The notes under the pieces: generated by a model
Seen by the model: the letters and a program-made list of their open reading frames with translations, nothing else
Databases searched by the model: none
What the model was told of the DNA's origin: nothing
Translations under genes and position numbers: made by a program
Assembly (NCBI GenBank): GCA_021325175.1
Contig: JAJPHS010000136.1
Span: 1-32,710, forward strand
Reading direction: 5' to 3'
Length of the DNA stretch: 32,710 nucleotides
Origin: Terriglobia bacterium
GTDB lineage: Bacteria; Acidobacteriota; Terriglobia; Bryobacterales; Bryobacteraceae
Shown here: piece by piece, positions 6,748 through 23,210 of the stretch
Layout of the letters: every line of letters starts with the position of its first letter
Numbering within the stretch: position 1 is the stretch's first letter

Positions 6748-7557
6748 ATGCGCGTCCGCTCGGTTTTTTTGCTGGTAGTTGCGGGATTTGCCACCTGGGG
6801 CGTGTTACGCGCGCAACGGCCGTTCCAGCAATATCAAACCGCCGAGGAACACGCCGAATACTCGATTCCTTCCGACGCCTACGAAACTCACGAATGGACT
6901 CGCGCGCGGCTCGCCTATCCGTCGATTATGGCGCCGCACGGCTACCCTGACGGCTACAAACGCTGGACCATCGATTATCCGCGCTCGGACCGGCTGCTGC
7001 TTAAGGGGATTAAACGGTTGACGCGCATCGACGCCCGATCGGTGGAGCAGGTGGTGTTTCTGGACGGCTCCGACGACGTCTATAACTGGCCGCTGATGTA
7101 CGCGGTAGAGGTTGGCTACTGGAATCTCACCGATGAAATGGCGGCGCAGCTTCGCGAATATCTGCTGCGGGGCGGATTTTTCATGTGCGACGACTTTCAC
7201 GGCACCATCGAGTGGGAGAACTTCATGAACAGCATGAGGAAGGTTTTTCCCGACCGTCCGGTGGTGGATATTGACAACAAAGATCCCATCTTCCACGTCA
7301 TATATGATCTGGACGATCGTTTCCAGGTGGCCGGGGCGCAGTACCTGATGACCGGAAGGCGTTATGAATACGACGGTTACGAGGCCAAGTGGCGCGGGAT
7401 CTATGATGACAAGGGCCGGCTGATGGTGGTGATCTGCCACAATATGGACCTGGGTGACGCCTGGGAATGGTCCGATGATCCGCGGTATCCGGAAAAGTGG
7501 GCTTCACTCGCCTACCGGATTGCCTGTAACTATTTCATGTACGATTTATCTCACTGA
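6748..7557 (+). CDS. DUF4159 domain protein, exported or membrane-anchored
   Basis: This is a 269-residue protein with an N-terminal signal peptide or anchor (residues 1-22, hydrophobic up to VLRAQ). The rest matches DUF4159, a family with a class I glutamine-amidotransferase-like fold. Visible family blocks are YPRSDRLLLKGIKRLTRI (about 76-93), YAVEVGYWNL (about 115-124), and LRGGFFMCDDFHGTIEW (about 135-152), with Cys at the elbow. DUF4159 genes are commonly found next to MoxR/DUF58/VWA genes, and here it leads that operon. Its stop overlaps the next start by one base (TGATG). The enzymatic status of DUF4159 is not established. Confidence 0.85.
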   Translation: MRVRSVFLLVVAGFATWGVLRAQRPFQQYQTAEEHAEYSIPSDAYETHEWTRARLAYPSIMAPHGYPDGYKRWTIDYPRSDRLLLKGIKRLTRIDARSVEQVVFLDGSDDVYNWPLMYAVEVGYWNLTDEMAAQLREYLLRGGFFMCDDFHGTIEWENFMNSMRKVFPDRPVVDIDNKDPIFHVIYDLDDRFQVAGAQYLMTGRRYEYDGYEAKWRGIYDDKGRLMVVICHNMDLGDAWEWSDDPRYPEKWASLAYRIACNYFMYDLSH

Positions 7558-9824
7558 TGTTCGAGCTATTTTTCAAGTATCCGATGGCCGTGTTCTCACG
7601 CGGCACCTTCGTCTTTCTCGGCGGCTGGCCGAAATGGGCGCTGATTGCGGCGATCCTGGTGGCCGCGGCGGGGTTCGGATTGCTCGTGCGGCGGATGACG
7701 GCGGAACGGGGACGGGTGCACGGGGCGCGATCCGTCGCGGTGTGGCTGCTGCAAACCGCGCTCGCCTCCATCCTGCTGTTGATGCTTTGGCACCCGGCTT
7801 TGAGCGTCGCCACCTTACGCCCACAGCAGAATATCGTCGCGGTGGTGGTGGACGATTCGGCCAGCATGGCGACCCGGGACGCCGATGGCTCCTCGCGCCG
7901 CGAGGCGGCCGAGCGGGTGCTTAACTCCGGTCTTATCGACTCCTTGCAGAAAAAGTTTCAAGTTCGGCTTTATCGCTTGTCCGATCATCTGGAACGCATT
8001 CAGAAGCTCGATCAGCTTAACTCCTCCGGACAATCGACGCACATCGGCGATTCGCTCAAGGAAGTTTTGGCCGACGCCTCCAGCCTGCCGATCGGCGCGG
8101 TGGTTTTGTTGTCGGATGGCGCGGACAATTCCGGCGGAATCGATCTGGAGACCATTTCCGAGATTCGCCGCCAGCGCATTCCCATCCACACGATCGGGTT
8201 CGGGCGCGAAAAGATGGCACGCGATGTCGAATTGACCGACGTTCAGGCGCCGCAGCGGGCGCTCCCCGATTCGCGATTGGCCGTGCAGGTGAGCTTTCAT
8301 CAGCACGGCTACGCCGGTCAGACCGCGAAGATCACCTTGAAAGACGGCAACAAGGTTCTGGCCACGCGATCGGTGGTGATGAAGGCTGATGGGGTGGAAC
8401 AAACCGAATCGATTTTGTTTAATGCCGGAACGGCAGGCGTGAAGACGATTGAAGCCTCGATCGATCCGCTGCCGAACGAAGAGAATGTGAAAAACAACCA
8501 GTTGATCCGGCTGGTGAACGTGGACAAGCGAACTGCGCTGGTTCTTTATATGGAAGGCGAGCCTCGCTGGGAGTTTAAGTTCCTCAAGCGCGCCGTCGAG
8601 GACGACCGCAATCTGCACCTGCTCACGATTTTGCGGACCACGCAAAACAAGATCTACGTCCAGGACGAGCACAACGACGTCCCCAAGCTGAAAGACGGCT
8701 TCCCGACGCGGGTCGAGGACCTGTTCCAGTTCGATGGATTGATCATCGGATCGAGCGAAGCGGCCTATTTCACCAGCAATCAGCAGCAGTTCATTCACGA
8801 TTTTGTCGACCGGCGCGGCGGCGGCCTGCTGTTTCTGGGCGGCAAGGATGCGCTGGCCGACGGCGGATATAAGCAATCCGCGCTGAACGACCTGCTACCG
8901 GTGATTCTGCCCGATAGAAAGGGCACTTTCGTGCGTGCGCCGGCCAATGTCGAGCTCACCAACGCGGGCCGCGACAGCCTGATTACGCGAATTGAGGAAG
9001 ATCCGCAGAAAAACGCCGAAAAATGGCGCAAAATGCCGTACATTTTGAACTTTCAGGATCCGGGGCAGCCCAAGCCCGGCGCGGTGGTGTTAATGGACGG
9101 CCTGCCGCTGCAAGGCGGGCGTTTTCCGCTGCTGATCACGGAAAATTACGGGCGCGGGCGCACCGCCGTGTTCGCCACCGGAGGAAGCTGGCGCGGCTGG
9201 CAGATGCAGATGCCGGTTTCCGACATGACTCATGAGATGTTCTACACCCAGCTTCTGCGCTGGCTGGTGAACGATACGCCGCGGCGCGTGGTGGCCTCGA
9301 CTCCGCGCCAGGTTTTAGAAGACGAAGCCAAGGTGAAGCTTCGCGCGCAAGTTTTTGGCGCGACTTATCTGCCGGCGAGCGACGCGACCGTGGAGGCGCA
9401 CATTCTCGGTCCGGAAGGAATCGCCGAAACGGTCGAAATGCGGCCCGATCCTGTCGAACCGGGAGTGTTTACATCGGAATATACGACGCCGAAGGCCGGA
9501 TCTTATTTAGTCGAGATGACGGCCAAGCGCGCGGGCGAAGATCTGGGCCGCGATACGCTGACGTTCCGGCGCGAGGATGGCGTGGCGGAAAATTTCAAGG
9601 TTGAACAGAATCGCGAACTGCTCGAGAAACTGGCGCAGGAAACCGGCGGCCGGTATTACACGCCGGCGGAGGCGCGGAAGCTCGGCGAGGATATCAGCTA
9701 TTCGGACGCGGGCATCACGGTGCGCGAAACGCGCGATTTGTGGGACATGCCGGCGGTGTTCTTGCTGCTGCTGATGCTGCGGTCCGGCGAGTGGCTGTTG
9801 CGACGGAAATGGGGCGTGATATGA
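7557..9824 (+). CDS. VWA and GATase1-like membrane protein
   Basis: The 755-residue protein has two N-terminal membrane helices (about 25-45 and 60-82). A von Willebrand A domain follows, with an intact MIDAS start (Asp99-x-Ser101-x-Ser103) and LLSDG at Asp187. After a beta-sandwich stretch there is a GATase1-like domain (about 340-450; DGLIIGSSEAAYF, then GGGLLFLGG) and a further beta-rich region. The protein ends in a hydrophobic helix (MPAVFLLLLMLRS) and a basic tail. VWA domains with a MIDAS bind divalent metal and partner proteins. The GATase-like domain has no obvious nucleophilic Cys at the elbow, so it may be structural. The start overlaps the DUF4159 stop and the end overlaps the next gene by ATGA. 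Confidence 0.88.
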   Translation: MFELFFKYPMAVFSRGTFVFLGGWPKWALIAAILVAAAGFGLLVRRMTAERGRVHGARSVAVWLLQTALASILLLMLWHPALSVATLRPQQNIVAVVVDDSASMATRDADGSSRREAAERVLNSGLIDSLQKKFQVRLYRLSDHLERIQKLDQLNSSGQSTHIGDSLKEVLADASSLPIGAVVLLSDGADNSGGIDLETISEIRRQRIPIHTIGFGREKMARDVELTDVQAPQRALPDSRLAVQVSFHQHGYAGQTAKITLKDGNKVLATRSVVMKADGVEQTESILFNAGTAGVKTIEASIDPLPNEENVKNNQLIRLVNVDKRTALVLYMEGEPRWEFKFLKRAVEDDRNLHLLTILRTTQNKIYVQDEHNDVPKLKDGFPTRVEDLFQFDGLIIGSSEAAYFTSNQQQFIHDFVDRRGGGLLFLGGKDALADGGYKQSALNDLLPVILPDRKGTFVRAPANVELTNAGRDSLITRIEEDPQKNAEKWRKMPYILNFQDPGQPKPGAVVLMDGLPLQGGRFPLLITENYGRGRTAVFATGGSWRGWQMQMPVSDMTHEMFYTQLLRWLVNDTPRRVVASTPRQVLEDEAKVKLRAQVFGATYLPASDATVEAHILGPEGIAETVEMRPDPVEPGVFTSEYTTPKAGSYLVEMTAKRAGEDLGRDTLTFRREDGVAENFKVEQNRELLEKLAQETGGRYYTPAEARKLGEDISYSDAGITVRETRDLWDMPAVFLLLLMLRSGEWLLRRKWGVI

Positions 9825-10768
9825 GAATTTGTGGCCGGGCCATTACGGGCGGGGCTTTTCTCGTTCTGCTCGCGGCGCCGCTGATGCGGGCGGAGACGTT
9901 TTATCTGACCATCGCCGGGCTGGGCGGGGAGCCGGAATACGAGCAGCGCTTCGAGGGCTGGGCCAAGGATCTGGACAAGCTCCTCAAGCAAGCCGAGCCG
10001 AACGCCAAGATCGCGACCATGTTCGGCGACGGCGCGACGAAAAACGCGATCCAGGCGAAATTTCAGGAGATTGCGCGGCAGGCTAAGCCTGACGATTCGG
10101 TCATCGTGATGCTGATCGGCCACGGCAGCTTCGACGAGTCCGACTACAAGTTCAACATCCCGGGCCCGGATCTGACCGGAACCGAGCTGGCCAACATGCT
10201 GGATACAATTCCGGCAAAACACCAGCTTGTCGTGAATATGACGAGCTCGAGCGGCGCATCGATTGTATCGCTTGAAAAGCCGGGACGCGTGGTGATCACG
10301 GCGACCAAGGCCGGCACGGAAAAGAACGCGACCTATTTCGCGCGCTACTGGATCGAGGCGCTGCGCGATCCCGCGGCCGACGCGGACAAAAACCAGGTGA
10401 TCAGCGCGCTTGAGGCGTTTCGCTACGCGGAAGAGAAAACGGCGAAATTTTTCGAGACGCAGAATCGGCTCGCCACCGAGCATGCGCTGATCGAGGACAC
10501 CGGCAAGGGCGATGGCGTCAAAGCGCCCGGTCCGGATAATGGCGAAGGGCTGGCGGCGGGCCGCTTTGCGGTTCTCCATCTGGGCGCGGTTTCGGCGCAA
10601 ATCAACGATCCGGAAAAATTGAAGCTGCTGAAGCACAAAGAAGAACTGGAGCAGGCCATCGACGAATTGAAGTATAAGAAAGCCTCGATGGATTTCAACG
10701 AATACCGGCGGCAACTGCAGGGATACTTGATCGAGCTCGCCAGAACGCAGGAGGCGCTCGATAAGTGA
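9821..10768 (+). CDS. Caspase/legumain-fold (C13-like) protein, exported, catalytic Cys apparently absent
   Basis: From the ATG at 9821 (ATGA overlap with the previous stop) the protein has 315 residues, with a signal peptide to about residue 24. The fold call rests on a strand ending in the IGHGS motif with His101, then a second strand VVNMTSSSGAS (137-147). In C13/C14 peptidases that second position carries the catalytic Cys (x-C-x-S-G); here Ser142 stands there. A 12-residue EF-hand-like loop, Asp187 to Glu198, has D, D, N, S and E in the expected ligand positions and is followed by a helix, a layout I recall from bacterial legumain-like proteins. The C-terminus (about 265-315) is a predicted coiled coil. 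It may be a pseudo-enzyme or a partner-binding scaffold. An unrelated alpha/beta fold is possible. Confidence 0.65.
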   Translation: MRICGRAITGGAFLVLLAAPLMRAETFYLTIAGLGGEPEYEQRFEGWAKDLDKLLKQAEPNAKIATMFGDGATKNAIQAKFQEIARQAKPDDSVIVMLIGHGSFDESDYKFNIPGPDLTGTELANMLDTIPAKHQLVVNMTSSSGASIVSLEKPGRVVITATKAGTEKNATYFARYWIEALRDPAADADKNQVISALEAFRYAEEKTAKFFETQNRLATEHALIEDTGKGDGVKAPGPDNGEGLAAGRFAVLHLGAVSAQINDPEKLKLLKHKEELEQAIDELKYKKASMDFNEYRRQLQGYLIELARTQEALDK

Positions 10769-12996
10769 AGCTCACGGTAGTTTCGGTTCTCATCGCGGCT
10801 CTGCCGGCCGCGGCGCAGACGGTGGACCCGGCTCGCTGCGCGGCGCTGAAACATCACGGCGATCCGCAGACGGCGGCGTGCTTTCAGCAACTCACCCGAT
10901 CCGGCGATCCGGGAATCGCGGCCGAAGGCTATTGGGGGCTGCGCGATTACCAGCGCGCCAACGATCTGTTTCGCGCCGCCGTGAAAGCGCATGATAAAGA
11001 TCCCAATTTACGCGTGCGCTGGGGCCGCATGTACCTGGAACACTGGCAGCCCGGCGACGCCAGCGATCTTTTCCGCGAGGCGCTGGAACTAAAAAAGGAT
11101 TATGCTCCCGCGCTGCTCGGCCTGGCGCTGGTCGCCGCGGACGGGTTCGAGGGGAAAGCGACGGAGCTGGCGCAGCAGGCGCTGAAGAGCGATCCCAAAC
11201 TGGTGGAAGCTCAGGAACTGCTGGCGCGCGTGGCGCTGGAGGACAACAATCCGGAAAAGGCGGCGAGCGAGGCGAACAAGGCGCTGGCGATCTCTCCGGA
11301 AGCGCTGGACGCCATGTCGGTGCTGGCGGCTATCGACTGGTTGAACGATAAGAAGACCACTCCGTGGCTCGACCGGATTTTGCAGATCAATCCGCATTAC
11401 GGCGAGGTGTACGAAACCGCCGGGCATTTTTTCATCATCAATCGCCGCTACGATGAAGGCATTCTGGCGTATCGCAAAGCGCTTCAATTGAAGCCGGATC
11501 TGTGGAGCGCGCGCAGCGAGCTCGGCATCAACCTGATGCGGCTGGGCGATGAGACGGAAGCGCGGCAGCAGCTTGAAGAGTGCTGGCGTAACGGATACCA
11601 GAGCACGTCAACGAAAAATTCGCTCACGCTGCTCGACAGTTATAAGAACTTCGTCACCTACCGGACTCCGACGACCATCATCCGGCTGCACAAAAAGGAA
11701 GCCGAACTGCTGCGGCCGTACGTTGAAAGCGAGATGCAGCGCGCGCTCGCCACGTATGAAAAGAAATACAAGTTCAAGCTGAACGGGCCGGTGGAGCTGG
11801 AAGTTTATCCGGATCACGAAGATTTCGCGGTGCGCACCATGGGCATGCCCGGCCTCGGCGCGCTGGGGGTGACGTTCGTCGCCACGCAGGCGTTCACCGA
11901 AGGCGAGCACGGCGCGAAGTTCACGGCGTCGGTGGCCATGGATTCTCCAAGCGCGCGGCCTCCGGGGCAGTTTCATTGGGACAGCACGATGTGGCACGAG
12001 TTGAGCCACGTCTACGTGCTGGCGATGACCAACAGCCGCGTCCCGCGCTGGTTCACTGAAGGACTGGCGGTGTATGAGGAGACGGCCAACGGCAACCCCG
12101 ATTGGGGCGACCGGCTCGATCCGGAGGCGATCAACGCCATAAAAAATCACAAGCTGCTGCCGATCTCGGAGCTGGATCGCGGCTTCATTCATCCCACTTA
12201 TCCTGCGCAGGTCGTCGTGTCGTATTTTCAGGGCGGCAAGATCTGCAACTTTATCGATCAGAAGTGGGGCTATGGGAAGCTGCTGGCGATGATCGAGGAT
12301 TTCAAGAATCTGACGCCGACGGTGGACGTGATTCAGAAAGAATTCAATCTGAAGCCGGAGGAGTTCGATAAGCAATTCCTGGCCTGGCTGGATGATTCGA
12401 CCAAAGTCAGCGTAAACGGATTCGAGGAGTGGAAAAAGCAGCTTCTCGAAGTCTCCAAGGCGGCCAAGCAGAAGGATTGGGACAAAGTGATCCAGCTCGG
12501 CGCGCCGATTCGTGACGTCTATTCCGATTATGTCGAAGCGGGCAGCGTCTACGAATTTTTATCCGACGCCTATCTGGCGAAAAACGACAAGGCGGGCGCG
12601 ATGAAGCAGCTCGCGCGTTACGCCGATGTCGGCGGGCGGGATCCGGCGCTGCTCAAGAAGCTTTCCGATCTTGAAGCCGAAGCCGGAGACAAACGCGCCG
12701 CGGCGCGCACGCTGGAGCGGCTGGATCTGATTTATTTGAAGGACGAGGAAGCGCACCGCAAGCTGGGCCAGCTCGATATGGATTTGAAAAATTACGAGGG
12801 CGCGATTCGCGAATGGGGCGCCGCGCTGGCCGGCGGCACGGTCGATCCGGCGGGCGCGCATTATGAACGGGCGGTCGCGCTGAACGCGCTGCATCGCAGC
12901 GCCGAAGCCAAGGATGAAGTTCTGTCGGCGCTCGAAGTGGCGCCGGAGTACAAGCCCGCCCAAAAACTACTGCTTGAATTAAGCGACAAGGAATAA
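10765..12996 (+). CDS. TPR protein with gluzincin (MA-type) metallopeptidase domain
   Basis: The start is GTG at 10765, overlapping the previous stop as GTGA, and gives 743 residues with a signal peptide to about residue 18. TPR-like helical repeats occupy about residues 50-280. A peptidase domain (about 300-530) follows, with zinc-binding His411-Glu412-x-x-His415 (HELSH) and the third ligand Glu432 in WFTEGLAVYE. A second TPR-like block covers about 560-740. The HExxH plus TEGLA pattern is that of the peptidase MA-like family. Zinc ligands and catalytic Glu are all present, so activity is plausible, probably in the periplasm. The position inside the MoxR operon suggests it processes or remodels a partner handled by that system, which is inference. 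Confidence 0.88.
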   Translation: MKLTVVSVLIAALPAAAQTVDPARCAALKHHGDPQTAACFQQLTRSGDPGIAAEGYWGLRDYQRANDLFRAAVKAHDKDPNLRVRWGRMYLEHWQPGDASDLFREALELKKDYAPALLGLALVAADGFEGKATELAQQALKSDPKLVEAQELLARVALEDNNPEKAASEANKALAISPEALDAMSVLAAIDWLNDKKTTPWLDRILQINPHYGEVYETAGHFFIINRRYDEGILAYRKALQLKPDLWSARSELGINLMRLGDETEARQQLEECWRNGYQSTSTKNSLTLLDSYKNFVTYRTPTTIIRLHKKEAELLRPYVESEMQRALATYEKKYKFKLNGPVELEVYPDHEDFAVRTMGMPGLGALGVTFVATQAFTEGEHGAKFTASVAMDSPSARPPGQFHWDSTMWHELSHVYVLAMTNSRVPRWFTEGLAVYEETANGNPDWGDRLDPEAINAIKNHKLLPISELDRGFIHPTYPAQVVVSYFQGGKICNFIDQKWGYGKLLAMIEDFKNLTPTVDVIQKEFNLKPEEFDKQFLAWLDDSTKVSVNGFEEWKKQLLEVSKAAKQKDWDKVIQLGAPIRDVYSDYVEAGSVYEFLSDAYLAKNDKAGAMKQLARYADVGGRDPALLKKLSDLEAEAGDKRAAARTLERLDLIYLKDEEAHRKLGQLDMDLKNYEGAIREWGAALAGGTVDPAGAHYERAVALNALHRSAEAKDEVLSALEVAPEYKPAQKLLLELSDKE

Positions 12997-13010
12997 GACA
13001 GAATAATTAA

Positions 13011-14036
<1,026 letters not shown>

Positions 14037-14062
14037 ACGCGGCGGCCGGCTCCGGCTGATGC

Positions 14063-14069
14063 AGGAAAG
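14063..14069 (+). promoter_or_regulatory. Ribosome binding site for the DUF58 gene
   Basis: AGGAAAG (14063-14069) immediately precedes the ATG at 14070 and supports that start in a 33-bp gap after MoxR. Confidence 0.5.
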
Positions 14070-14957
14070 ATGTTGCAACGATTTCTAGATCCGAGTGTTC
14101 TCGCCGGCATTTCCGGACTGGATCTGATCGCCAAAACGGTCGTCGACGGATTCATCGCCGGTCTGCACCGCTCGCCCGATTTCGGATTCAGCCAGGAGTT
14201 TGCCGAATATCGCGCCTACACGCCCGGCGACGATCTGCGGCACATCGATTGGAACGTCTTTGCGCGCACCGAGCGCGCCTTTCTCAAACGCTATCGGGGC
14301 GAAACCAACTCGCAGTTGACCATCCTGCTCGACGCCAGCCGGTCGATGAAGTTCGGCTCGCATCCCACTGATAAGCTCGAATACGCGAAGTTTTTAGCCG
14401 CATCGCTGGCCTATCTGGCCAATATGCAGCGCGACGCGGCGGGGCTGATCGTTTTCGACGACGAGGTTCGCCGCTACGTGCGGGCGTCGTCGCGGCAGGG
14501 CCAGCTTGCGCGGATTCTGCACGCCATCGAGAACGCGGAGGCCGGCGCGCGGACCAATTTTGCCCATCCGTTCCTGACGCTTCAGGAATTTTTGCGCCGC
14601 CGGGGAATCGTGGTCGCCATCTCGGATTTCTGGGAACAGCCGGCGAAAATCATCCAGACGGTCGAGCCGCTGCGCTATCGCGGCAACGAGCTGATTCTGT
14701 TTCACGTGCTTGATCCCGAAGAGATTCATCCCAAGCTGCGCTATCCGGTGCTGCTGGAGGATCTGGAAACGGGCGAGGCGATGGAGGTGTCGCCCGATTA
14801 CGCCTCGCACGAATATCGCGACAAAATGGACGCGCATCTGGAGGACCTGCGCACTCGCGCCAGGGGCGCGGGCATCGATTATTTTTTGATTGACACCAGC
14901 CGCCCGCTGGACGCCGCGCTGCGCGAGTACCTGGCGATCCGGAAAGGAAAAATGTGA
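14070..14957 (+). CDS. DUF58 domain protein (MoxR partner, VWA-like)
   Basis: This 295-residue protein carries the DUF58 signature EFAEYRAYTPGDDLRHIDWN (about 48-67), followed by a VWA-like start with Asp-Ala-Ser-Arg-Ser (LLDASRSM, about 89-96) that resembles a MIDAS. It lacks the N-terminal membrane helices found in many DUF58 proteins, so it is probably soluble and cytoplasmic. DUF58 proteins are the usual direct neighbours of MoxR and are thought to couple the ATPase to membrane VWA proteins. The next gene starts 40 bases downstream. Confidence 0.94.
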   Translation: MLQRFLDPSVLAGISGLDLIAKTVVDGFIAGLHRSPDFGFSQEFAEYRAYTPGDDLRHIDWNVFARTERAFLKRYRGETNSQLTILLDASRSMKFGSHPTDKLEYAKFLAASLAYLANMQRDAAGLIVFDDEVRRYVRASSRQGQLARILHAIENAEAGARTNFAHPFLTLQEFLRRRGIVVAISDFWEQPAKIIQTVEPLRYRGNELILFHVLDPEEIHPKLRYPVLLEDLETGEAMEVSPDYASHEYRDKMDAHLEDLRTRARGAGIDYFLIDTSRPLDAALREYLAIRKGKM

Positions 14958-14997
14958 CGGCGTTGACGGATTCCCGCACGGGCCACTAGAGAGTTTT

Positions 14998-17031
14998 ATG
15001 GGCTTCCTCGCACCATGGTTTTTAGCCGGGATCGCGGCCGTCGGGCTGCCGGTCTGGCTTCATCTGCTCAAAAAGCATCGCTCCGATCCGCGTTATTTTC
15101 CGTCGCTGATGCTGTTTGAAAAGCGCGAGGTAAGCTCGGTGAAGCACCGCCGCCTGGAGCACCTGTTGTTGTTCGCTCTGCGGGCGGCGATGCTGATCCT
15201 GCTCGCGCTGCTGTTCGCCAATCCGTTTATCCGGCGCGCCATTCCGATCGGGGGGCAGAAGCATCTTACGCTGATCGCGATCGACGATTCGTTCAGCATG
15301 AGGGCGGGGAATCGCTTGCAGCAGGCCAAGGATCAGGCGCAGAGCATTCTTTCCTCGGTGCGCCCCGGCGATCCGGTGCAGGTGGTCGCGCTGGGAGCCC
15401 AGATCCAGACGCTGACGCAGCCCACGACGGATCCTGGCGAGGCTCGCGCCGCGATCAACTCGATCCAGCCGACTGATAGCCGCGCCTCGTTCGGTGAGCT
15501 GGCGCGCTATTCGCGGACGCTCGCCGAATCGATCAAATCGCCGATCGAGCTGAATCTGGTGAGCGATCTGCAAAGATCGGCGATGCCGCCGGGATTCGCC
15601 GATCTGCGGCTCGAGCCGGGAACAAATCTGGTGCTGCATCAGGTGGGCGACGCGGCGCCGAACTGGACGGTGGAAAGCGTCACGGCGCCGCGGCGGGTTT
15701 ACGATCCCAAAAAAGTTCGCATTCAGGCCATCATTGCGGGGTTCGGCGCCCCGGCCGCCAAGCGCACCGTATCGCTGCTGCTCAACGGAAAATCGCTGCA
15801 GACCAAAACGGTGGATGTCGCCGAAAACGGCCGCGCGCAGGTCGAATTTCTGGGACTTGACGCGCCCTACGGATTCAGCCGGGGCGAAGTGCGCATCGAT
15901 TCGGCCGACATTCTGGCCGCCGACGATCATTACGATTTCGCGGTGGAGCGCGCCGATCCGAAAAAAATTCTGTTCGTCGACGACGGCCGGCATCCGCGCG
16001 CGGAACTGTACTACAAAGCCGCGCTCGACGCCTCGCCCGATTCGGCGTTCACGCTCGAAACCCTGCGGCCGGATCAGGCCGCCAACGCGAAGCTTGGAAA
16101 TTACGCTCTGATCGTTCTTTCGGATCTGGGCGCTTTGCCCGGCGGCTTTGAAGATTCGCTCAAAGCCTACGTTGCCGCCGGCGGATCGCTGCTCATCGCG
16201 CTGGGACCGGCATCGGCCGCTTCGCCGCGCGTTCCGGTGCTTGATGAAGCGATCCAAAGCTCCTCGTACGCGCATCCGGAGGGCCAGATGTTTCTGAGCG
16301 TCTCCGATCTGGACACCGGCGATCCGGTGATGCGTGATCTGGAGCGCTTCGACGGCGTCAAGTTTTACCAGGCGATCCGCGTCACCAGCGCGAAATCGCG
16401 GGTTCTGGCGCGGCTCAACGACGGGACGCCGCTGGTGCTGGAGCAGGCGATCGGCGAAGGCAAAGTGATGGCCTTCGCTTCGACATTCGACAACACGGCT
16501 AACGATCTGCCGCTGCACGCGGCCTGGGTTCCTTTCGTGCAGCGATCGGCGGAGTATCTCGGCGGCGAGGGCGGCGATCAGCCGGTGAACGTTACTGCGG
16601 ATTCCTATATCGAGTTGCGCGCCTCCGGCGATAAGACAGGCGCGGCCGAAGTTCTGCTCGACGGGCGCCGCCTGCTATCGCTTGAGGAGGCCGCCGCGGC
16701 GAGAAATTTCGCGGTTCACAAGGAAGGTTTCTACGAAGTGAAAACGGCCAGCGGCCGGCGCAGTCTGATCGCCGTTCACGCCGACCGGCGCGAGTCGGAC
16801 CTCGCCGTCATTCCCAAGGAAACGCTTGATTTATGGAAGGCCACCGGCAGTGACGAAAACGCGTCCGGCGCGTCAGCATCGGTAGATCAAGGGGATAAGA
16901 AACCCTGGGGCCTCTGGCCGATCTTATTATTGATATTGTTGGGTGTGGCGATTGCGGAATCGATCGTCGCGGACCGTCATTTGAAACCGCCGGCTGCGGC
17001 GGAGAAGACCAAGCGAAAGGAAGCGGCATGA
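14998..17031 (+). CDS. BatA/VWA-domain membrane protein with GATase-like region
   Basis: I take the ATG at 14998 (677 residues): it gives the canonical BatA N-terminus, MGFLAPWFLAGI...PVWLHLL, with GAGAG about ten bases upstream. An upstream in-frame start inside DUF58 would add 36 unsupported residues. Membrane helices lie at about 1-22, 57-78 and 636-658. A VWA domain begins at Asp96-x-Ser98-x-Ser100 (DDSFS). A beta-sandwich stretch follows, then a GATase-like region starting at FVDDGRHPRAE (about 325). The tail is Lys/Arg-rich. BatA-type proteins partner MoxR and DUF58 at the membrane. The end overlaps the next start by ATGA. Confidence 0.9.
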   Translation: MGFLAPWFLAGIAAVGLPVWLHLLKKHRSDPRYFPSLMLFEKREVSSVKHRRLEHLLLFALRAAMLILLALLFANPFIRRAIPIGGQKHLTLIAIDDSFSMRAGNRLQQAKDQAQSILSSVRPGDPVQVVALGAQIQTLTQPTTDPGEARAAINSIQPTDSRASFGELARYSRTLAESIKSPIELNLVSDLQRSAMPPGFADLRLEPGTNLVLHQVGDAAPNWTVESVTAPRRVYDPKKVRIQAIIAGFGAPAAKRTVSLLLNGKSLQTKTVDVAENGRAQVEFLGLDAPYGFSRGEVRIDSADILAADDHYDFAVERADPKKILFVDDGRHPRAELYYKAALDASPDSAFTLETLRPDQAANAKLGNYALIVLSDLGALPGGFEDSLKAYVAAGGSLLIALGPASAASPRVPVLDEAIQSSSYAHPEGQMFLSVSDLDTGDPVMRDLERFDGVKFYQAIRVTSAKSRVLARLNDGTPLVLEQAIGEGKVMAFASTFDNTANDLPLHAAWVPFVQRSAEYLGGEGGDQPVNVTADSYIELRASGDKTGAAEVLLDGRRLLSLEEAAAARNFAVHKEGFYEVKTASGRRSLIAVHADRRESDLAVIPKETLDLWKATGSDENASGASASVDQGDKKPWGLWPILLLILLGVAIAESIVADRHLKPPAAAEKTKRKEAA

Positions 17032-20000
17032 ACACGCGCGAACAATTGAACCAATATCTGCGCGGCCTGGAGACGCGCCTAAGATGGCTGGCCGTTTCAA
17101 AGGGTGCGGCAATTGCGGCCGGCGTTGCGCTCGGCGTCACGCTGGCGATGGTGCTGGTCACAAATGCCCTGGCGTTTTCTTCGAGCAGCCTCACGGTGGC
17201 GCGAGTGGTGTTGTTCCTCGCGCTCGCGATTGCCATCGCGTTCGGGATGGTGCTGCCGTTGCTGCGGCTGAATCAGCGCCGGGCCGCGCGGCGGGCGGAG
17301 CGGACCTTTCCCGAGTTTGAAGAACGCCTCCTGACTTTCGTCGAGCGCCGCGAGCACGGCGATCCGATGCTCGATCTATTGGCGGAAGATACGGCGACGG
17401 TCGCGCAGCGCACGGAAACGGCTCGCGTGGCGCCGCCGAAATCGATTTTTGCGTTTGCGACGTCGGCCGGAGCGGCGGCGGCCGCGCTGGCGTGGCTGAT
17501 TGTCGCGGGTCCCGGGTTCCTCGGCTACGGCGCATCGCTGTTGTGGGCCGGACTGCCCAAGGGAACGACGGGCGCGTTCTATGACATAAAGATCGAACCC
17601 GGCAACAAACTTATCCGCCGTAAAGCGGACCAGATGGTCACCGCGACGCTGGTCGGGTTCCAGGCGCCGCAGGTGAAGGTCTACGCGCGTTATCAGAGCG
17701 CGCTCAAGTGGGAAGAAGCTCCCATGCTGCCGCGCGATAGCGGATCGGCATATGAATTTTTGTTCGCCGCGGTGCCGGAGCCGGTCGAGTATTACGTCGA
17801 AGCGGCGGGCGTGCGATCGAAAACCTATAAGCTCGACGTGGTGGACATGCCGGCGATCAAAAAAGTAAAGGTGACCTACCATTTCCCGAGCTGGCTGCAT
17901 CTGTCCGACGCGACTGAAGATCCGGGCGGCGATTTGCGGGCCGTCGCGGGAACCGTCGCCGAGCTGCGCGTCGAAACGGATCGCCCGCTTAGAACCGGAA
18001 CCATCGAGCTCGATAACGGCCAGCACATTTCGCTCGATCCTGACGCGAGCGGAACCGTGCTCACCGCCAAGGTGCCGATCAACAAGGACGGCATGTATCA
18101 CTTCGCCGCCAATGAGCAGGGCCAGAGCGTTCGCTTGAGCGAGGATTTCTTCATCGAAGCCCGCGAAGACAACGCACCGAACGTGAAGATTACGCGTCCC
18201 GGCGCCGACGCCAGGGTCAGCCCCATCGAGGAGGTGCCGGTTGAGGTCGCAGGCGACGACGATTTCGCGCTGGAATCCATGGATCTGCACTATTCCGTCA
18301 ACGGCGGCGCGGAAAAGACCGTTTCCATGCTGCCGCAAAGAGGCGTGAAGCAGGCGAGCGGCCGCACGACGATTTATCTTGAAGACTACAAGCTGACGCC
18401 GGGCGACGTGGTCGCGATTTACGCGACGGCGCGCGACGCGCGCACCACCTCGCGCACCGATATCATGTTCATCGAGACCCAGCCCTATGAGCGCAACTAC
18501 TCGCAATCGCAGCAGATGGGCGGCGGCGGGGGCGGCGGCGATCAGGATCAGAACCGGATTTCGGAGCGCGAAAAAGAAATCATCGCGGCCACCTGGAATG
18601 AAATTCGCGGCGGCGCGAAGGAAAAGGTCAACGCGGCCGATAACGCGAAATTCCTCTCCGAAGTGCAAAGCAAGTTGAAGGAGCAGGCGATGTCGCTGGC
18701 GCAGCGCACGCGCAGCCGGGAGCTCGCCGGGCAGAATCAGGAGTTTCAATCCTTCACCAAGGAAATGGAAGCCGCGGCGGCGGAAATGGGTCCGGCATCG
18801 GACAAATTGAAAGGTCAGGGCTGGAAAGACGCGCTTGAGCCGGAGCAGCGGGCGCTGCAGCATCTGCTGCGCGCCGAAGCCACGATGCGCGACATTCAGG
18901 TCGCTTTCGGGGCAAACGGCGGCGGCGGTGGCGGCGGAGCGGGCCGCGATCTGGCGAACCTCTTCGATCTCGAGCTCGACACGGAAAAAAATCAGTACGA
19001 AACGGGCCAGCAGCAGGGCTCCTCGCAGGAACAGCGACAGAAAGAGATCGATGAGGCGCTGCAAAAACTACAGCAGCTCGCGCAACGCCAGCAGGAGCTG
19101 GTGCAACAACAGCAGAACAAACAAAGCTTCGAGCAGCGCTGGCAGCAGGAAATGCTGCGCCGGGAAGCCGAAGAGCTGAAAAAGCAGTTGGAACAGCTCC
19201 AGCAGCAGGGCCAGCAATCCGCCCAGGGCCAGCAGTCGCAATCGGGCCAGCAGGGCCAGAGCGGATCGCAATCGTCGTCTTCGCGCGGATCGCAGAGCGG
19301 CATGAGCGGCCGGCAGAGCGATCAGCGCTTGCAGCGCGCGCTCGATCAGCTTCGCCAGGCGGAAAACGATATGCGCTCGGCGCAATCCTCGGCGGCGCAA
19401 GGCCAGCAAGGGCAGGCGGCAAGTCAGGCAGATGCGCGCCGCGCGGCGGAGCGGTTAAAAGAAGCGCAGGATCAATTGGGCGGAATGCGCCAGCAGCAGG
19501 CCGCGGCGCAATTGAACGATCTGGCGCAGCGCGCGCGGAAGCTCGCCGATCAGCAGCGGGATTTTGAAAATCGCCTGCGCAAAGCTTACGGCGAGGATTA
19601 TCTGAACGGGGGCGGCCCGCGCTTCGGACAGCAATCGAACATGTCGCGCCAGCAGGCCGCGCAGCTCGCCGATGAAAAAGACAAGATGACCAACGACGCC
19701 GGCCAGCTCGAGCAGGACATGCAGAAAGCGGCTCGCGATATGGCGGGTACGCAGCCGCGCGCCTCCTCCGCGGTGCGCGAGGCGCTTTCCGAGATGCAGC
19801 AGAACGAAGCTCGCGGGCGGATGAAGTACGCGGCCGATAATATCCGGCGCGGCCTTGGCGGATACATGGTGCCGCGCGAAGCGCCGATCACGCAGACGAT
19901 GGACAAGGTCGCCGACGATTTGCAGCGCGCGCAGGCCGCCCTCGATCCCAACGCGCCGGGCCAGCAGGGCCCGCGGGACGGGCAGACGCAGCGGTCCCTC

Positions 20001-20594
20001 GCCGAAGTCGAGCGGCTGCGCGATCAGTTGGAGCGCATGGCGAGCCAGAACGGCAACCGCCAGGGCAACCAGCAGGGCCAGTCCGGCCAGCAAGGGCAGA
20101 ACGGGCAGCAGGGCAATGCCGCCAACGGTGGCCAGCGCGGCGGCGGCAGCAACGGACGCCTCAACGGCGGCGATCGCGGATACGGCAATCGCTTCGACGG
20201 TCCGGGAACGTATTACGGCCGCTTCGCTCCGGAAGGAATGTACCAGTATCCGAATGGCGACGTATGGGATCCGAGTCGCATGATGCAGGATGCCACGCGC
20301 GCGCTGAACCAGATGCGCCAGGAGTATAAAGATAATCCCGATATGGCGCGGCAGATCGGCGATTTGCAGCAGGAGCTTTCGCGGATGCAGGTGGGCGACA
20401 TCAGCTCGCAGGAGCTGACCAATCGCCTGAACCGCGTAGTGCTGCCGAATCTGGAATCGCTGGAGGTGCAACTGCGCCGCGAAGCCGATAAATCCAGCGG
20501 CGATCAGGTGCGCAGCGCCACCACCGATCGCGTGCCGGCGGGGTACATGGACGCGGTCGCGGAGTATTTCCGCAAACTCAGCAAGGGCAAGTAG
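17028..20594 (+). CDS. DUF4175-like giant membrane protein with Gln-rich coiled-coil tail
   Basis: This 1188-residue protein has three N-terminal membrane helices (about 26-47, 58-80, 141-166). Beta-rich, Ig-like segments span about 185-490. A Gly run (about 496-504) then opens a long helical region. Residues about 655-1060 are extremely rich in Gln, Arg, Glu, Ala and Ser, with coiled-coil stretches (about 670-725, 770-860) separated by low-complexity Gln/Gly/Ser blocks (about 725-765, 1015-1055). A conserved-looking C-terminal helical domain follows the Tyr/Gly-rich segment near 1065. This order matches DUF4175-type proteins found next to MoxR operons. It overlaps the BatA gene by ATGA and appears to be the last operon member. 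The size suggests a scaffold. Topology and ligand are unknown. Confidence 0.85.
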   Translation: MNTREQLNQYLRGLETRLRWLAVSKGAAIAAGVALGVTLAMVLVTNALAFSSSSLTVARVVLFLALAIAIAFGMVLPLLRLNQRRAARRAERTFPEFEERLLTFVERREHGDPMLDLLAEDTATVAQRTETARVAPPKSIFAFATSAGAAAAALAWLIVAGPGFLGYGASLLWAGLPKGTTGAFYDIKIEPGNKLIRRKADQMVTATLVGFQAPQVKVYARYQSALKWEEAPMLPRDSGSAYEFLFAAVPEPVEYYVEAAGVRSKTYKLDVVDMPAIKKVKVTYHFPSWLHLSDATEDPGGDLRAVAGTVAELRVETDRPLRTGTIELDNGQHISLDPDASGTVLTAKVPINKDGMYHFAANEQGQSVRLSEDFFIEAREDNAPNVKITRPGADARVSPIEEVPVEVAGDDDFALESMDLHYSVNGGAEKTVSMLPQRGVKQASGRTTIYLEDYKLTPGDVVAIYATARDARTTSRTDIMFIETQPYERNYSQSQQMGGGGGGGDQDQNRISEREKEIIAATWNEIRGGAKEKVNAADNAKFLSEVQSKLKEQAMSLAQRTRSRELAGQNQEFQSFTKEMEAAAAEMGPASDKLKGQGWKDALEPEQRALQHLLRAEATMRDIQVAFGANGGGGGGGAGRDLANLFDLELDTEKNQYETGQQQGSSQEQRQKEIDEALQKLQQLAQRQQELVQQQQNKQSFEQRWQQEMLRREAEELKKQLEQLQQQGQQSAQGQQSQSGQQGQSGSQSSSSRGSQSGMSGRQSDQRLQRALDQLRQAENDMRSAQSSAAQGQQGQAASQADARRAAERLKEAQDQLGGMRQQQAAAQLNDLAQRARKLADQQRDFENRLRKAYGEDYLNGGGPRFGQQSNMSRQQAAQLADEKDKMTNDAGQLEQDMQKAARDMAGTQPRASSAVREALSEMQQNEARGRMKYAADNIRRGLGGYMVPREAPITQTMDKVADDLQRAQAALDPNAPGQQGPRDGQTQRSLAEVERLRDQLERMASQNGNRQGNQQGQSGQQGQNGQQGNAANGGQRGGGSNGRLNGGDRGYGNRFDGPGTYYGRFAPEGMYQYPNGDVWDPSRMMQDATRALNQMRQEYKDNPDMARQIGDLQQELSRMQVGDISSQELTNRLNRVVLPNLESLEVQLRREADKSSGDQVRSATTDRVPAGYMDAVAEYFRKLSKGK

Positions 20595-20600
20595 TGAATG

Positions 20601-20615
20601 GCCAGCCTTGCTGGC
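20601..20615. terminator. Hairpin just after the MoxR operon
   Basis: GCCAGC (20601-20606) and GCTGGC (20610-20615) form a perfect 6-bp stem with a 3-base loop, starting six bases after the DUF4175 stop. No T-run follows, so it may be an operon-end hairpin rather than a classical intrinsic terminator. The 121-bp gap up to cobQ shows no other clear signal, including no B12-box-like cobalamin riboswitch. Confidence 0.3.
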
Positions 20616-20715
20616 GCGAAGTTTGCCGGAGCGGATTCCGCCGGAGGTGCTCGGCCGCGACCAGCAGGGCTCGCCTGAGCTGTTGGCCGCGCCTGCCGGA
20701 AACGGGACAGTGCAA

Positions 20716-22272
20716 ATGAGCGCACGCGCCCTCATGGTGCTCGGCACTGCTTCGCATGCCGGCAAGTCGATTTTGACAACCGCGTTGTGCCGCATTCTCT
20801 CGAATGAAGGCTTTCGCGTGGCGCCATTCAAAGCACAGAATATGTCGCTCAACTCCGCTGCAACACCGGACGGACGCGAGATCGGCCGCGCGCAGGCGCT
20901 GCAAGCCGAGGCGTGCCGGATTCCGCCCTCGGCCGCGATGAATCCGATTCTCATCAAGCCCTCGTGTGACAGAGCGGCGCAGATCGTTGTGCTGGGAAAG
21001 GTGTGGGGCCAGATGACGGCGGCGGATTATCACGAATGCCGGGTGGAGGAACTGTTTCCTACCGTTGTGGAGGCGTATCAACAACTGGCGGCGGAGTATG
21101 ACGTGGTGGTTCTCGAAGGCGCGGGCTCGCCGGCTGAGATCAATCTGAAGGCGCACGACATCGTAAACATGCGGATGGCGAAAGCCGCTGGCGCGGCCTG
21201 TTTGCTGGCCGCTGATATCGACCGGGGTGGAGTGTTCGCGTCGCTGCTGGGAACGGTCGAGCTTTTGGATGCAGAGGAGCGCGCCCTTTTGCGCGGTTTC
21301 ATCATCAACAAATTTCGCGGCGACGTGAGCCTGTTGCGGCCGGGAGTGGAAATGATCGCCGAGCGCGTCCGGATTCCCTGCGCCGGCATCGTGCCGTGGC
21401 TTCCGAATCTCGGCCTCGATGAAGAGGACAGTGTCGCAATGGAAGAGCGCCGCACCGCGAGTCGCGCGTGGGCCGAGCGTTCAAACGGTCCGGATCGCGC
21501 ATTGCGCATCGGCGTCATCGCCTTTCCCTACATGGCCAACTTCACCGATTTCGATGAGTTGTCCGCCGAGCCTTCCGTCGCACTCGCATTTCTCGAACAT
21601 CCCTCCGACGTGCGCGATGCCGACCTTTTGATCCTGCCGGGGTCGAAGCAGACTCTCGACGATCTGGCGTGGCTGCGGCGCCGCGGCTGGGAGCCGGAGA
21701 TCCACAACTTCGCGGGCCGTGCGGGCGTCCTCGGGATTTGTGGCGGCATGCAAATGATGGGGCACGGCATAGAAGATCCGGAAGGTGTGGAAAGCCACGG
21801 ATCCGCGCGATCGGCGCACGGACTCGGACTGCTGCCGATCACAACGGTGCTCCGGCACAAGAAGGTTACGCGCCCGGTACAGGGCCGAGTGGCGCCGAGC
21901 GCGCTGTTCGGAGCGCGGCTGGAAGCACCCTGCTTTCGTGGCTATGAAATCCACATGGGCGAAACGGTATACACCGAAGGCGCGCAACCATTCGCCGAAA
22001 TTCAGCGCGCCGGCGTAGCAGGCTCGATTCTGGATGGCGCGATTGCCGGGCATGTCCGCGCATACGGTACGTACGTTCACGGCCTGTTTCATGAAGACGT
22101 GTTCCGGCACTCCTTCCTGGCCGCGGCCCGGAGCGCGTGCGGGCTTGCTCCGATTGAAAGCCGCGCCTTCGTTACGGCAGAACGCGAAGGACGCATCGAC
22201 CGGCTGGCCGAACACGTGCGCCAATCGCTCGATATGGAGTTGATTCATGAATGTCTGGGAGTCCGGAGATGA
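20716..22272 (+). CDS. cobQ: Cobyric acid synthase
   Basis: From the ATG at 20716 this is 518 residues, the usual family length. It uses glutamine and ATP to amidate the b, d, e and g side chains of (adenosyl)cobyrinic acid a,c-diamide. The N-terminal synthetase domain has the modified P-loop GTASHAGKS (10-18) and the FKAQNMSLNS block (about 37-46). The C-terminal glutaminase domain carries nucleophile Cys342 in GICGGMQMMG and the catalytic His455 in TYVHGLF. A TTG 36 codons upstream is in frame, but family members start at the chosen Met. It overlaps cbiB by four bases, heading a three-gene cobalamin cassette. Confidence 0.95.
   Translation: MSARALMVLGTASHAGKSILTTALCRILSNEGFRVAPFKAQNMSLNSAATPDGREIGRAQALQAEACRIPPSAAMNPILIKPSCDRAAQIVVLGKVWGQMTAADYHECRVEELFPTVVEAYQQLAAEYDVVVLEGAGSPAEINLKAHDIVNMRMAKAAGAACLLAADIDRGGVFASLLGTVELLDAEERALLRGFIINKFRGDVSLLRPGVEMIAERVRIPCAGIVPWLPNLGLDEEDSVAMEERRTASRAWAERSNGPDRALRIGVIAFPYMANFTDFDELSAEPSVALAFLEHPSDVRDADLLILPGSKQTLDDLAWLRRRGWEPEIHNFAGRAGVLGICGGMQMMGHGIEDPEGVESHGSARSAHGLGLLPITTVLRHKKVTRPVQGRVAPSALFGARLEAPCFRGYEIHMGETVYTEGAQPFAEIQRAGVAGSILDGAIAGHVRAYGTYVHGLFHEDVFRHSFLAAARSACGLAPIESRAFVTAEREGRIDRLAEHVRQSLDMELIHECLGVRR
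22257..22261 (+). promoter_or_regulatory. Ribosome binding site deciding the cbiB start
   Basis: GGGAG at 22257-22261 lies seven bases before the ATG at 22269 and falls inside the alternative ORF start at 22251. This favours 22269, which also makes the ATGA overlap with cobQ. Confidence 0.6.
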
Positions 22273-23210
22273 CCGCGCCCATGCTGCCAAGCCGCTTTCT
22301 CGCCGCGTATGCGCTCGATTGGATCGCGGGTGATCCGCCGTCGATGCCGCATCCGGTCCGGCTGATCGGGGCCGCCATTTCGCATGGCGAACGCCTGCTG
22401 CGCCGCCCGGCAAAACCCGAAATAGAACTGGTGCAAGGCGCATTTCTGACCGCGGGAGTCGTCTTCGGCGCATGGGTAGTCGCACGATGGGTTCGGAACG
22501 CGAGTCCCATGGCCGAGATTCTGCTCGGCTGGACCACGCTGGCAACCCGCAGCCTGCTGGATGAGTCTGCCGCTGTGGTCCGGGCAGTCGAGGCGGGCGA
22601 CCTGCTGCGGGCGCGTCTGCTGCTCTCACGAATCGTGGGCCGCGACACGGAGTCGCTGGATGAGCCGGAAATCCTGCGCGCCGTTATCGAGACCTTGGCG
22701 GAGGGCCTTTGCGACGGGGTTGTCGCTCCGTTGATCTATCTCGCGCTCGGCGGCGTGCCGGCGGCGTTCGCTTACAAGGCCATCAACACGCTCGATTCGA
22801 TGATCGGCCATCCTGAGCCTCCCTATCGCTACTTCGGCCGTGTCGCCGCGCGCCTGGATGACGTCGCGAATTTCATTCCCGCGCGGGTGGCCGCGGCCAC
22901 GATTTGCGCTGCCGCGCTTCTGACGAAATACGACGCCCGCCAGGCCTGGCGCATCCTCCTGCGCGACGGCAGCAATCATCCAAGCCCGAACGCCGGGCGA
23001 CCCGAAGCCGCGATGGCCGGCGCGCTCGGCGTGCGATTGGGAGGCATGAATTACTACGGCGGGGAGCCTTCGCCCAAGCCGGTTTTGGGCGTCGAAGGAC
23101 ATTGCGCAACAGTCCGCGACGCGCGGAAGGCGTTATTCATTACCGCAGTCGCTTCGGTCGCCGCTTTCTCAGTGGCATGGATCTGCCTCGCAATCGGGAG
23201 GCGAAGGTGA
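22269..23210 (+). CDS. cbiB: Adenosylcobinamide-phosphate synthase (CbiB / CobD type)
   Basis: This 313-residue membrane protein joins the aminopropanol (or aminopropanol-phosphate) arm to cobyric acid. Family marks are the N-terminal LDWIAGDPPSMPHPVRLIG block (about 16-34), AYKAINTLDSMIGH (about 172-185) and the Gly-rich LGGMNYYGG with following EGHCATVRDARKA near the C-terminus. Several hydrophobic segments are present (about 57-75, 145-165, 210-222, 288-310). An in-frame ATG at 22251 would add six residues; the Shine-Dalgarno and the 4-base overlap with cobQ favour 22269. Its stop overlaps the next GTG start (GTGA). The name cobD is used for this protein in some organisms. Confidence 0.95.
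   Translation: MTAPMLPSRFLAAYALDWIAGDPPSMPHPVRLIGAAISHGERLLRRPAKPEIELVQGAFLTAGVVFGAWVVARWVRNASPMAEILLGWTTLATRSLLDESAAVVRAVEAGDLLRARLLLSRIVGRDTESLDEPEILRAVIETLAEGLCDGVVAPLIYLALGGVPAAFAYKAINTLDSMIGHPEPPYRYFGRVAARLDDVANFIPARVAAATICAAALLTKYDARQAWRILLRDGSNHPSPNAGRPEAAMAGALGVRLGGMNYYGGEPSPKPVLGVEGHCATVRDARKALFITAVASVAAFSVAWICLAIGRRR
23196..23200 (+). promoter_or_regulatory. Ribosome binding site for the GTG-started decarboxylase
   Basis: GGGAG at 23196-23200 sits six bases before the GTG at 23207. It supports that start over longer in-frame readings into cbiB. Confidence 0.6.

What the first reader, a model, noticed from the sequence alone, without database searches (positions are those of the whole stretch)
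6748..20594. An expanded MoxR/DUF58/BatA operon with two protease-fold members and a giant Gln-rich scaffold
Seen: eight same-strand genes, four junctions overlapping by 1-4 bases (7557, 9821, 10765, 17028) and the other three gaps 14-40 bp. Known: MoxR, DUF58 and VWA/BatA genes travel together and are thought to be chaperone-like. Inference: a caspase-fold exported protein and a TPR-metallopeptidase embedded between the VWA protein and MoxR suggest a proteolytic or maturation branch, and the DUF4175 protein may be the membrane scaffold. I know of no defined function for this combination.
Basis: partly seen in the sequence, partly recalled or inferred. Interest (0 to 1): 0.7.

Follow-up and report, generated by a model that had tools for sequence, protein, structure and literature searches.

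The report
Conserved envelope operon with a pseudo-caspase
Eight neighbouring genes that recur together in many bacteria of one phylum appear to build an ATP-driven cell-envelope machine, with one metal protease whose active site looks intact and one caspase-shaped protein that has lost its cutting residue.

Summary
In detail: eight same-strand genes at 6748-20594, four junctions overlapping by 1-4 bases, three gaps of 14-40 bases. They encode DUF4159, a VWA/GATase-like membrane protein (V), a caspase-fold protein (C), a TPR gluzincin (T), MoxR, DUF58, a BatA/VWA protein and a DUF4175-like protein. In 396 Acidobacteriota genomes, C and V occur together in 114, apart in 5, and are both absent from 277. 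A Gemmatimonadota replicon carries the whole set.

One correction: C keeps the caspase His (88 of 88 readable relatives), but the catalytic Cys column is Ser in 79 of 89 and Cys in none, so C is probably a pseudo-peptidase. T keeps HExxH...E (79 of 79 readable).

The core is homologous to an R. leguminosarum four-gene locus with the layout of RL3499-RL3502 (cmdA-D), whose mutants are reported to have morphology and envelope defects. That stretch lacks C, T and the DUF4175-like gene. Best reading: a MoxR-driven envelope-maintenance machine with a translationally coupled periplasmic processing branch. Localisation, complex, ATP coupling and substrate are inferred. New variant of a known kind.

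The parts
6748..7557 (+). d: DUF4159 protein, 269 aa, N-terminal hydrophobic leader
   Evidence: PF13709 135.1 bits; in relatives a d gene lies before V, between T and MoxR, or at both places
7557..9824 (+). V: VWA plus GATase-like membrane protein, 755 aa
   Evidence: PF00092 27.5 bits, PF07090 22.6 bits (below cut-off); DxSxS and the later Asp of the metal site kept in 91 of 91 readable
9821..10768 (+). C: exported caspase-fold protein, 315 aa, probable pseudo-peptidase
   Evidence: PF01650 22.4 bits; caspase-fold matches of the model; metacaspase-4 profile hit
10121..10123 (+). Codon of the caspase-type His (His101) of C
   Evidence: codon checked; His in 88 of 88 readable relatives
10244..10246 (+). 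Codon of Ser142 of C, at the column of the catalytic Cys
   Evidence: alignment with metacaspase-4; column is Ser 79, Thr 2, Pro 2, Ala 2, Asn 2, Gly 1, Glu 1, Cys 0 of 89; codon checked
10765..12996 (+). T: TPR - gluzincin - TPR protein, 743 aa, N-terminal leader
   Evidence: PF13485 33.9 bits and TPR models; model helices on both sides of a mixed region
11995..12009 (+). HExxH motif of T (HELSH); third ligand Glu432 at 12058-12060
   Evidence: codons checked; both kept in 79 of 79 readable relatives
13011..14036 (+). M: MoxR AAA+ ATPase, 341 aa
   Evidence: PF07726 200.8 bits; Walker A and B conserved
14070..14957 (+). F: DUF58 protein with VWA-type site, 295 aa
   Evidence: PF01882 148.8 bits; DxSxS in 81 of 81
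14998..17031 (+). B: BatA-type membrane protein with VWA, 677 aa
   Evidence: PF07584 55.6 bits, PF13519 46.7 bits; TIGR02226 56.2 bits; DxSxS in 79 of 79
17028..20594 (+). S: DUF4175-like, Gln-rich membrane protein, 1188 aa
   Evidence: PF13779 21.2 bits, below cut-off; three hydrophobic segments in the window protein and in 66 of 73 relatives

Best explanation
The eight genes encode one inner-membrane-centred machine for envelope maintenance, an elaboration, seen here in Acidobacteriota and one Gemmatimonadota replicon, of the cmdA-D (RL3499-RL3502) kind of MoxR system. MoxR and the DUF58 protein would be the cytosolic ATP-driven part. Three membrane proteins (V, B, S) would carry force or signal across the membrane, with their VWA and GATase-like domains in the periplasm. 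There DUF4159, the caspase-fold pseudo-peptidase C and the gluzincin T act. V, C and T are translationally coupled and co-inherited, so C most likely works as a binding or gating subunit between V and T, and T cuts or trims an envelope protein. Shown here: gene set, conservation, gene coupling, active-site state, homology to the Rhizobium layout. Inferred: localisation (hydropathy only), complex formation, ATP coupling, substrate.
For: V, C and T mark the same genomes: 36 of 149 for C and T, 37 for V, the extra one a fragment; in 396 genomes C and V together in 114, apart in 5. V-C overlap of 4 bases in 68 of 86 and C-T in 53 of 71. In G014 and G134, C and T left the core cluster together (loci L074, L075). 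T active site kept in 79 of 79; C Cys column without Cys in 89 of 89. Rhizobium record NZ_CP022567.1: MoxR (46% over 316 aa), DUF58 (profile 84 bits), BatA-DUF4159 fusion, V homologue (E 3e-18) in one run. RL3499-RL3502 mutants are reported to have morphology and envelope defects (passages). A BatA-type protein of Borrelia was found in the inner membrane with its VWA domain towards the periplasm. NorQ/NorD: a MoxR-VWA pair said to exert a twisting and stretching force (abstract).
Against: No expression, localisation, interaction or phenotype data for any of these proteins. The Rhizobium envelope phenotype comes from a locus without C or T, so it says nothing of them. The DUF4159 protein alone does not match the Rhizobium fusion by BLASTP (E 0.37); the link rests on Pfam. 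Seven of 85 C loci have no T in the stretch, though each of those genomes has T elsewhere. V loci without C exist (6 of 90), and three genomes have a distant DUF58-BatA-V set without C and without a MoxR hit in the stretch. Most sampled genomes of the phylum lack the set (277 of 396 lack both C and V). In 5 of 89 C proteins there is a Cys one residue after the catalytic column.
Confidence: 0.45

Rival explanations
1. A chaperone-only system: MoxR and the VWA proteins mature or metallate a dedicated envelope enzyme, as NorQD does for nitric oxide reductase; T and C assist folding or assembly, and proteolysis is minor.
For: MoxR/VWA precedent (abstract); three proteins with VWA metal-site motifs kept; C lacks the catalytic Cys.
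Against: No client gene is conserved with the cluster: the two upstream neighbours tested recur only in the 93%-identical relative, and cobQ/cobD give no hit at 1e-10 (60 of the 76 S-bearing loci reach more than 1500 bases beyond S). T keeps its metal-protease motif in 79 of 79.
Confidence: 0.2
2. C is itself an active hydrolase that uses Ser in place of Cys, so both protease-fold members cut.
For: His kept in 88 of 88 readable; Ser in 79 of 89 at the Cys column and in 85 of 89 two residues on.
Against: The Cys-column residue is Thr, Pro, Ala, Asn, Gly or Glu in 10 of 89. Published surveys treat prokaryotic caspase homologues without the dyad as presumably inactive (abstract and passages).
Confidence: 0.1
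3. A Bat-type oxidative-stress or aerotolerance system.
For: BatA-type protein, MoxR and DUF58 are shared with the Bacteroides and spirochaete Bat regions (passages and Discussion).
Against: V, C, T and S are not among the Bat components listed in the passages read; the same Discussion says the oxidative-stress idea was not directly proven in Bacteroides or Leptospira.
Confidence: 0.1
4. A conflict or defence system of the MoxR-vWA ternary type.
For: MoxR matches Pfam bpMoxR above its cut-off (47.1 against 27 bits); those systems include caspase-like domains, many inactive (passages).
Against: Gene content is stable over the loci read rather than variable; C, T and d carry leaders; PADLOC gives only weak hits, 17-20 bits.
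Confidence: 0.05

Closest known systems
R. leguminosarum RL3499-RL3502 (cmdA-cmdD) operon; the 2011 paper itself was not held, seen only through citing passages
   Same: MoxR, DUF58, BatA-type and V-type genes in one run, with DUF4159
   Different: In the Rhizobium record read, DUF4159 is fused to the BatA-type protein, and the 25.4 kb stretch has no C or DUF4175-like hit and only a 22-bit TPR match to T. That this record is RL3499-RL3502 is inferred from gene content
Bat (Bacteroides aerotolerance) operons of Bacteroides and spirochaetes
   Same: MoxR, DUF58, BatA-type VWA proteins
   Different: V, C, T, DUF4159 and DUF4175-like genes are not named in the Bat passages read
MoxR-vWA ternary conflict systems (PMC7159879, passages)
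   Same: MoxR with VWA; caspase-like domains, a large part inactive
   Different: There the peptidase domains are mostly fused to other components and vary between systems; here they are separate, leader-bearing, conserved genes
Pseudo-orthocaspases (PMC6426788, abstract and passages)
   Same: Caspase p20-like fold with the catalytic dyad lost
   Different: There the dyad is mostly Tyr-Ser; here it is His-Ser, in an operon with MoxR and VWA genes. Main groups there are Cyanobacteria and Alphaproteobacteria
NorQ/NorD (PMC13036017, abstract)
   Same: MoxR AAA+ with a VWA partner
   Different: Serves one metalloenzyme; no membrane VWA proteins or peptidases are named in the abstract

Membership tests
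cmdA-D / RL3499-RL3502-type MoxR operon | MoxR, DUF58, BatA-type, DUF4159 and V-type components together | tested here: met
   DUF4159 by Pfam only, BLASTP E 0.37
cmdA-D / RL3499-RL3502-type MoxR operon | Loss causes envelope and morphology defects | not testable with these tools
   Reported for Rhizobium; no data for this organism
Bat aerotolerance operon | MoxR, DUF58 and BatA-type gene in one run | tested here: met
Bat aerotolerance operon | Role in oxygen or oxidative-stress tolerance | not testable with these tools
   no phenotype data
MoxR-vWA ternary conflict system | MoxR of the bpMoxR type | tested here: met
   PF20030 47.1 bits, cut-off 27; weaker than AAA_3 and not specific by itself
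MoxR-vWA ternary conflict system | Variable effector domains fused to the VWA or third component | tested here: not met
   No such fusion in the Pfam scan of the eight window proteins; stable gene content in the loci read. Fusions in relatives were not scanned
Clan CD cysteine peptidases (C13/C14) | Caspase-type fold | tested here: met
   Model matches MALT1, Dronc, metacaspase, caspase-9, CED-3, but mean pLDDT is 59 and TM-scores are 0.23-0.53 in ranks 1-36, where two PurE entries also appear; profile hit to metacaspase-4 E 1e-4; Peptidase_C13 in 8 of 22 relatives at E 0.01
Clan CD cysteine peptidases (C13/C14) | Catalytic His-Cys dyad | tested here: not met
   His 88 of 88; Cys 0 of 89 at the aligned column, 5 of 89 one residue on
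Gluzincin metallopeptidases (Peptidase_MA) | HExxH plus a later Glu ligand | tested here: met
   PF13485 33.9 bits, cut-off 32.4; 79 of 79 readable relatives; activity not tested
DUF4175 (PF13779) | Score above Pfam's curated cut-off | tested here: not met
   21.2 against 27.3 bits; nothing at E 0.01 in the genome-wide search. I therefore write DUF4175-like

The most novel reading that the evidence does not exclude
A dedicated ATP-powered envelope protein-processing system in which a cytosolic MoxR/DUF58 motor, acting through membrane VWA proteins, gates a periplasmic gluzincin by way of an obligatory pseudo-caspase subunit: motor and protease on opposite sides of the inner membrane.
Probability: 0.2. 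Interest if true: 0.75.

Novelty: new variant of a known kind. Interest (0 to 1): 0.55.

Why it matters
[quoted passage not shown] This version adds two parts with readable biochemistry, a gluzincin with an intact motif and a conserved caspase-fold pseudo-enzyme, tied to the V protein by conserved gene overlap and shared presence. That makes the open question testable: find what the gluzincin cuts and whether the pseudo-caspase is needed for it. It also points to a conserved, leader-bearing family of caspase homologues without the catalytic Cys in Acidobacteriota, with one Gemmatimonadota member that has Ser at that column too.

Tried and rejected
Mirror-tree correlations among seven genes over 64 loci (includes three duplicate loci): 0.92-0.97, but with no outside control gene, so not used as evidence. 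Promoter and terminator scan: 1 promoter-like site against 3.3 expected and 18 terminator-like sites against 17.0 expected; no conclusion. Foldseek of the T model: the 50 rows listed of 1677 are TPR or other helical-repeat scaffolds as far as the titles tell, so nothing on the peptidase part. phmmer of C against PDB sequences: one irrelevant hit; a 22-row profile was needed. Defence reading: weak PADLOC hits only. That the following cobQ/cobD genes belong to the unit: not supported; no hit at 1e-10 in 116 loci, though one search shows a partial cobQ in the near relative L031 and 16 of 76 S-bearing loci end within 1500 bases of S. That C is a cysteine peptidase: rejected. That the GATase-like domains of V and B are active: unlikely; a Cys in the checked elbow columns in 1 of 92 V and 1 of 79 B proteins.

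Literature: 0 held papers with MoxR, DUF58 and DUF4159; 0 with two of DUF4159, DUF4175, DUF58; 0 with caspase, Acidobacteria, MoxR and von Willebrand. The library is open-licence PMC only.

Rows dropped: 11 genomes with weak caspase-like matches (27-40 bits), dropped by hand; 2 V loci at contig ends; C loci at contig ends (number not printed).

Full report
WHAT IS THERE. The nearest named relatives of the caspase-fold gene are Terriglobia, Bryobacteraceae and Bryobacterales MAGs (6 loci), so I take the window to be a Bryobacteraceae-type Acidobacteriota genome. Searches confirm eight + strand genes at 6748-20594. I call them d (DUF4159), V (VWA/GATase-like), C (caspase-fold), T (TPR gluzincin), M (MoxR), F (DUF58), B (BatA/VWA), S (DUF4175-like). 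Two labels are weak: Peptidase_C13 (22.4 bits, cut-off 22.8) and DUF4175 (21.2 bits, cut-off 27.3; no genome-wide match at E 0.01).

CONSERVATION. In 149 Acidobacteriota genomes single-sequence searches find C in 36, V in 37 and T in 36; the C and T sets are identical and V adds only G080, a fragment. In 81 relatives (own genus to class) C is in 70 and V in 70, both in 69, neither in 10; the two discordant genomes, G175 and G186, have the cluster on contigs of 5694 and 3880 bases. With profiles over 396 genomes, C is in 115 after I dropped 11 genomes with weak caspase-like matches, V in 118, both in 114, neither in 277. The four V-only genomes are G080 (fragment) and G276, G449, G297, with low V scores (182-227 bits); the last three have DUF58, BatA-type and V-type genes, no C hit and no MoxR hit in the stretches fetched. 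The one C-only genome, G431, has a frame with two stops near a contig start. G235 counts as having both, but its C is only an 85-bit fragment and its V lies elsewhere.

So the set is a minority trait of the phylum. Wherever V is found, C nearly always is too. The system-type DUF58 follows the same pattern: matches of 227 bits or more are in 35 of those 36 genomes (not in G104, whose cluster is split over contigs) plus G131 and G080; the next match is 198 bits.

LAYOUT. Over 103 non-redundant loci (window and L031-L136 less four duplicates), V has C directly downstream in 84 of 90 testable cases. The six exceptions are L050, L058, L059, L117, L119 and L120. C has T downstream in 69 of 85; in 9 more T is elsewhere in the locus (seven with the permuted order TdMFBSVC, two as a T-C pair); seven have no T in the stretch, and all seven genomes have T elsewhere. 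These loci were picked for having V, C or system-type DUF58, so the fractions are not from a random sample. In G014 and G134 the core has neither C nor T (L050, L059), and the two sit together elsewhere (L075, L074). V-C overlaps by exactly 4 bases in 68 of 86, C-T in 53 of 71, B-S in 31 of 76 (duplicates included). The upstream neighbours recur only in the 93%-identical relative.

THE CASPASE-FOLD PROTEIN. 315 aa with a leader. The model from six close sequences is modest (mean pLDDT 59, block means up to 92 in the core). Its PDB matches at E 0.001 or better are mostly caspase-fold entries (GSU0716, MALT1, Dronc, metacaspase, caspase-9, CED-3), with TM-scores of 0.23-0.53 and two PurE entries among the 36. 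A 22-row profile hits metacaspase-4 at E 1e-4, and the alignment sets its Cys on the first Ser of the window's TSSSG. Over 89 distinct relatives His is kept in 88 of 88 readable; the Cys column reads Ser 79, Thr 2, Pro 2, Ala 2, Asn 2, Gly 1, Glu 1, Cys 0; five have Cys one residue on. The Gemmatirosa member has GHG and Ser there. It is very unlikely to be a cysteine peptidase; a Ser-based activity is not excluded. Such losses are known: a survey passage says Ser is the commonest replacement of Cys in prokaryotic caspase homologues (PMC3501461, passages).

THE GLUZINCIN. HExxH and the later Glu are kept in 79 of 79 readable relatives. The model (mean pLDDT 72.7) has helical-repeat regions on both sides of a mixed region with the motif.

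TOPOLOGY. A hydropathy script only: F none; M one marginal segment inside the AAA part; V two N-terminal segments (two in 52, three in 34 of 94 relatives); B three (64 of 79); S three (66 of 73); C and T one at the N-terminus; d a leader by eye only. Positive residues between the first two segments of V and B suggest that their VWA domains face the periplasm. Borrelia BB0173, a BatA-type protein, was reported in the inner membrane with its VWA domain towards the periplasm (PMC5700661, abstract and passages; Discussion).

BEYOND THE PHYLUM. A 1.1 Mb replicon of Gemmatirosa kalamazoonensis has V, C, T, d, M, F, B and S in that order. It was the only plasmid record hit by C; V hit five. Planctomyces plasmid pPL62-3 has M (cut by the record start), F, B, V and a 56-bit S hit, and no C or T hit. 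R. leguminosarum NZ_CP022567.1 has MoxR, DUF58, a 937-aa BatA-DUF4159 fusion and a V homologue, with no C or S hit and a 22-bit TPR match in 25.4 kb. The fusion suggests that d and B work together. The layout is that of RL3499-RL3502 (identity inferred). The 2011 paper was not held; its title and citing passages report morphology and envelope defects (PMC3893208, passages; PMC5118466, passages; PMC5700661).

HOW IT LIKELY WORKS. Best reading: an envelope-maintenance machine with a cytosolic MoxR/DUF58 motor, membrane VWA proteins and a periplasmic branch of gluzincin plus pseudo-caspase. Shown: gene set, conservation, gene coupling, active-site state, homology of the core. Inferred: place, complex, ATP coupling, substrate. 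The weak point is that the envelope phenotype is known only from a locus without C and T. NorQD is a published case of a MoxR-VWA pair exerting force (PMC13036017, abstract).

NOVELTY. The core is known; the combination with a conserved pseudo-caspase and gluzincin was not found by the searches in an open-licence library. MoxR-vWA conflict systems also hold inactive caspase-like domains (PMC7159879, passages), so the pairing of the two is not new in kind. I rate it a new variant of a known kind, interest 0.55.

Noticed in passing
L066-L072: The same genes in a circularly permuted order (TdMFBSVC) in seven genomes' loci; four of these genomes (G028, G041, G077, G116) also have a second cluster with V and C first.
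   Followed up: partly
L117-L120: Second, MoxR-less V-BatA clusters in genomes of the window's own genus (G157, G152, G159, G155), three of the four without a C hit.
   Followed up: partly
L142-L144: Distant DUF58-BatA-V sets without C and without a MoxR hit in the stretch.
   Followed up: partly
G000:C146, G000:C151, G000:C44, G000:C71: The own genome has a second DUF58 plus BatA-type locus on C146 and four more DUF4159 matches on C151, C44 and C71.
   Followed up: no
L141 8847-11660: Rhizobium fusion of a BatA-type N-terminus with DUF4159, a hint that these two proteins act together.
   Followed up: partly
window 106-2391 +: Tricorn-like protease ORF (PD40, Tricorn C1 and PDZ, Peptidase_S41).
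   Followed up: no
window 20608-24310 +: cobQ, cobD and an aminotransferase ORF follow the operon, a cobalamin-type run by Pfam and NCBIfam.
   Followed up: partly
window 25448-28168 +: 906-aa ORF whose only Pfam match is a K319L-like PKD domain, beside a 462-aa ORF at 28176-29564 without Pfam match.
   Followed up: no
L145, L146: G235, a single-contig genome, has T-d-M-F-B-S together, but only a C fragment beside it and a shortened V far away.
   Followed up: no
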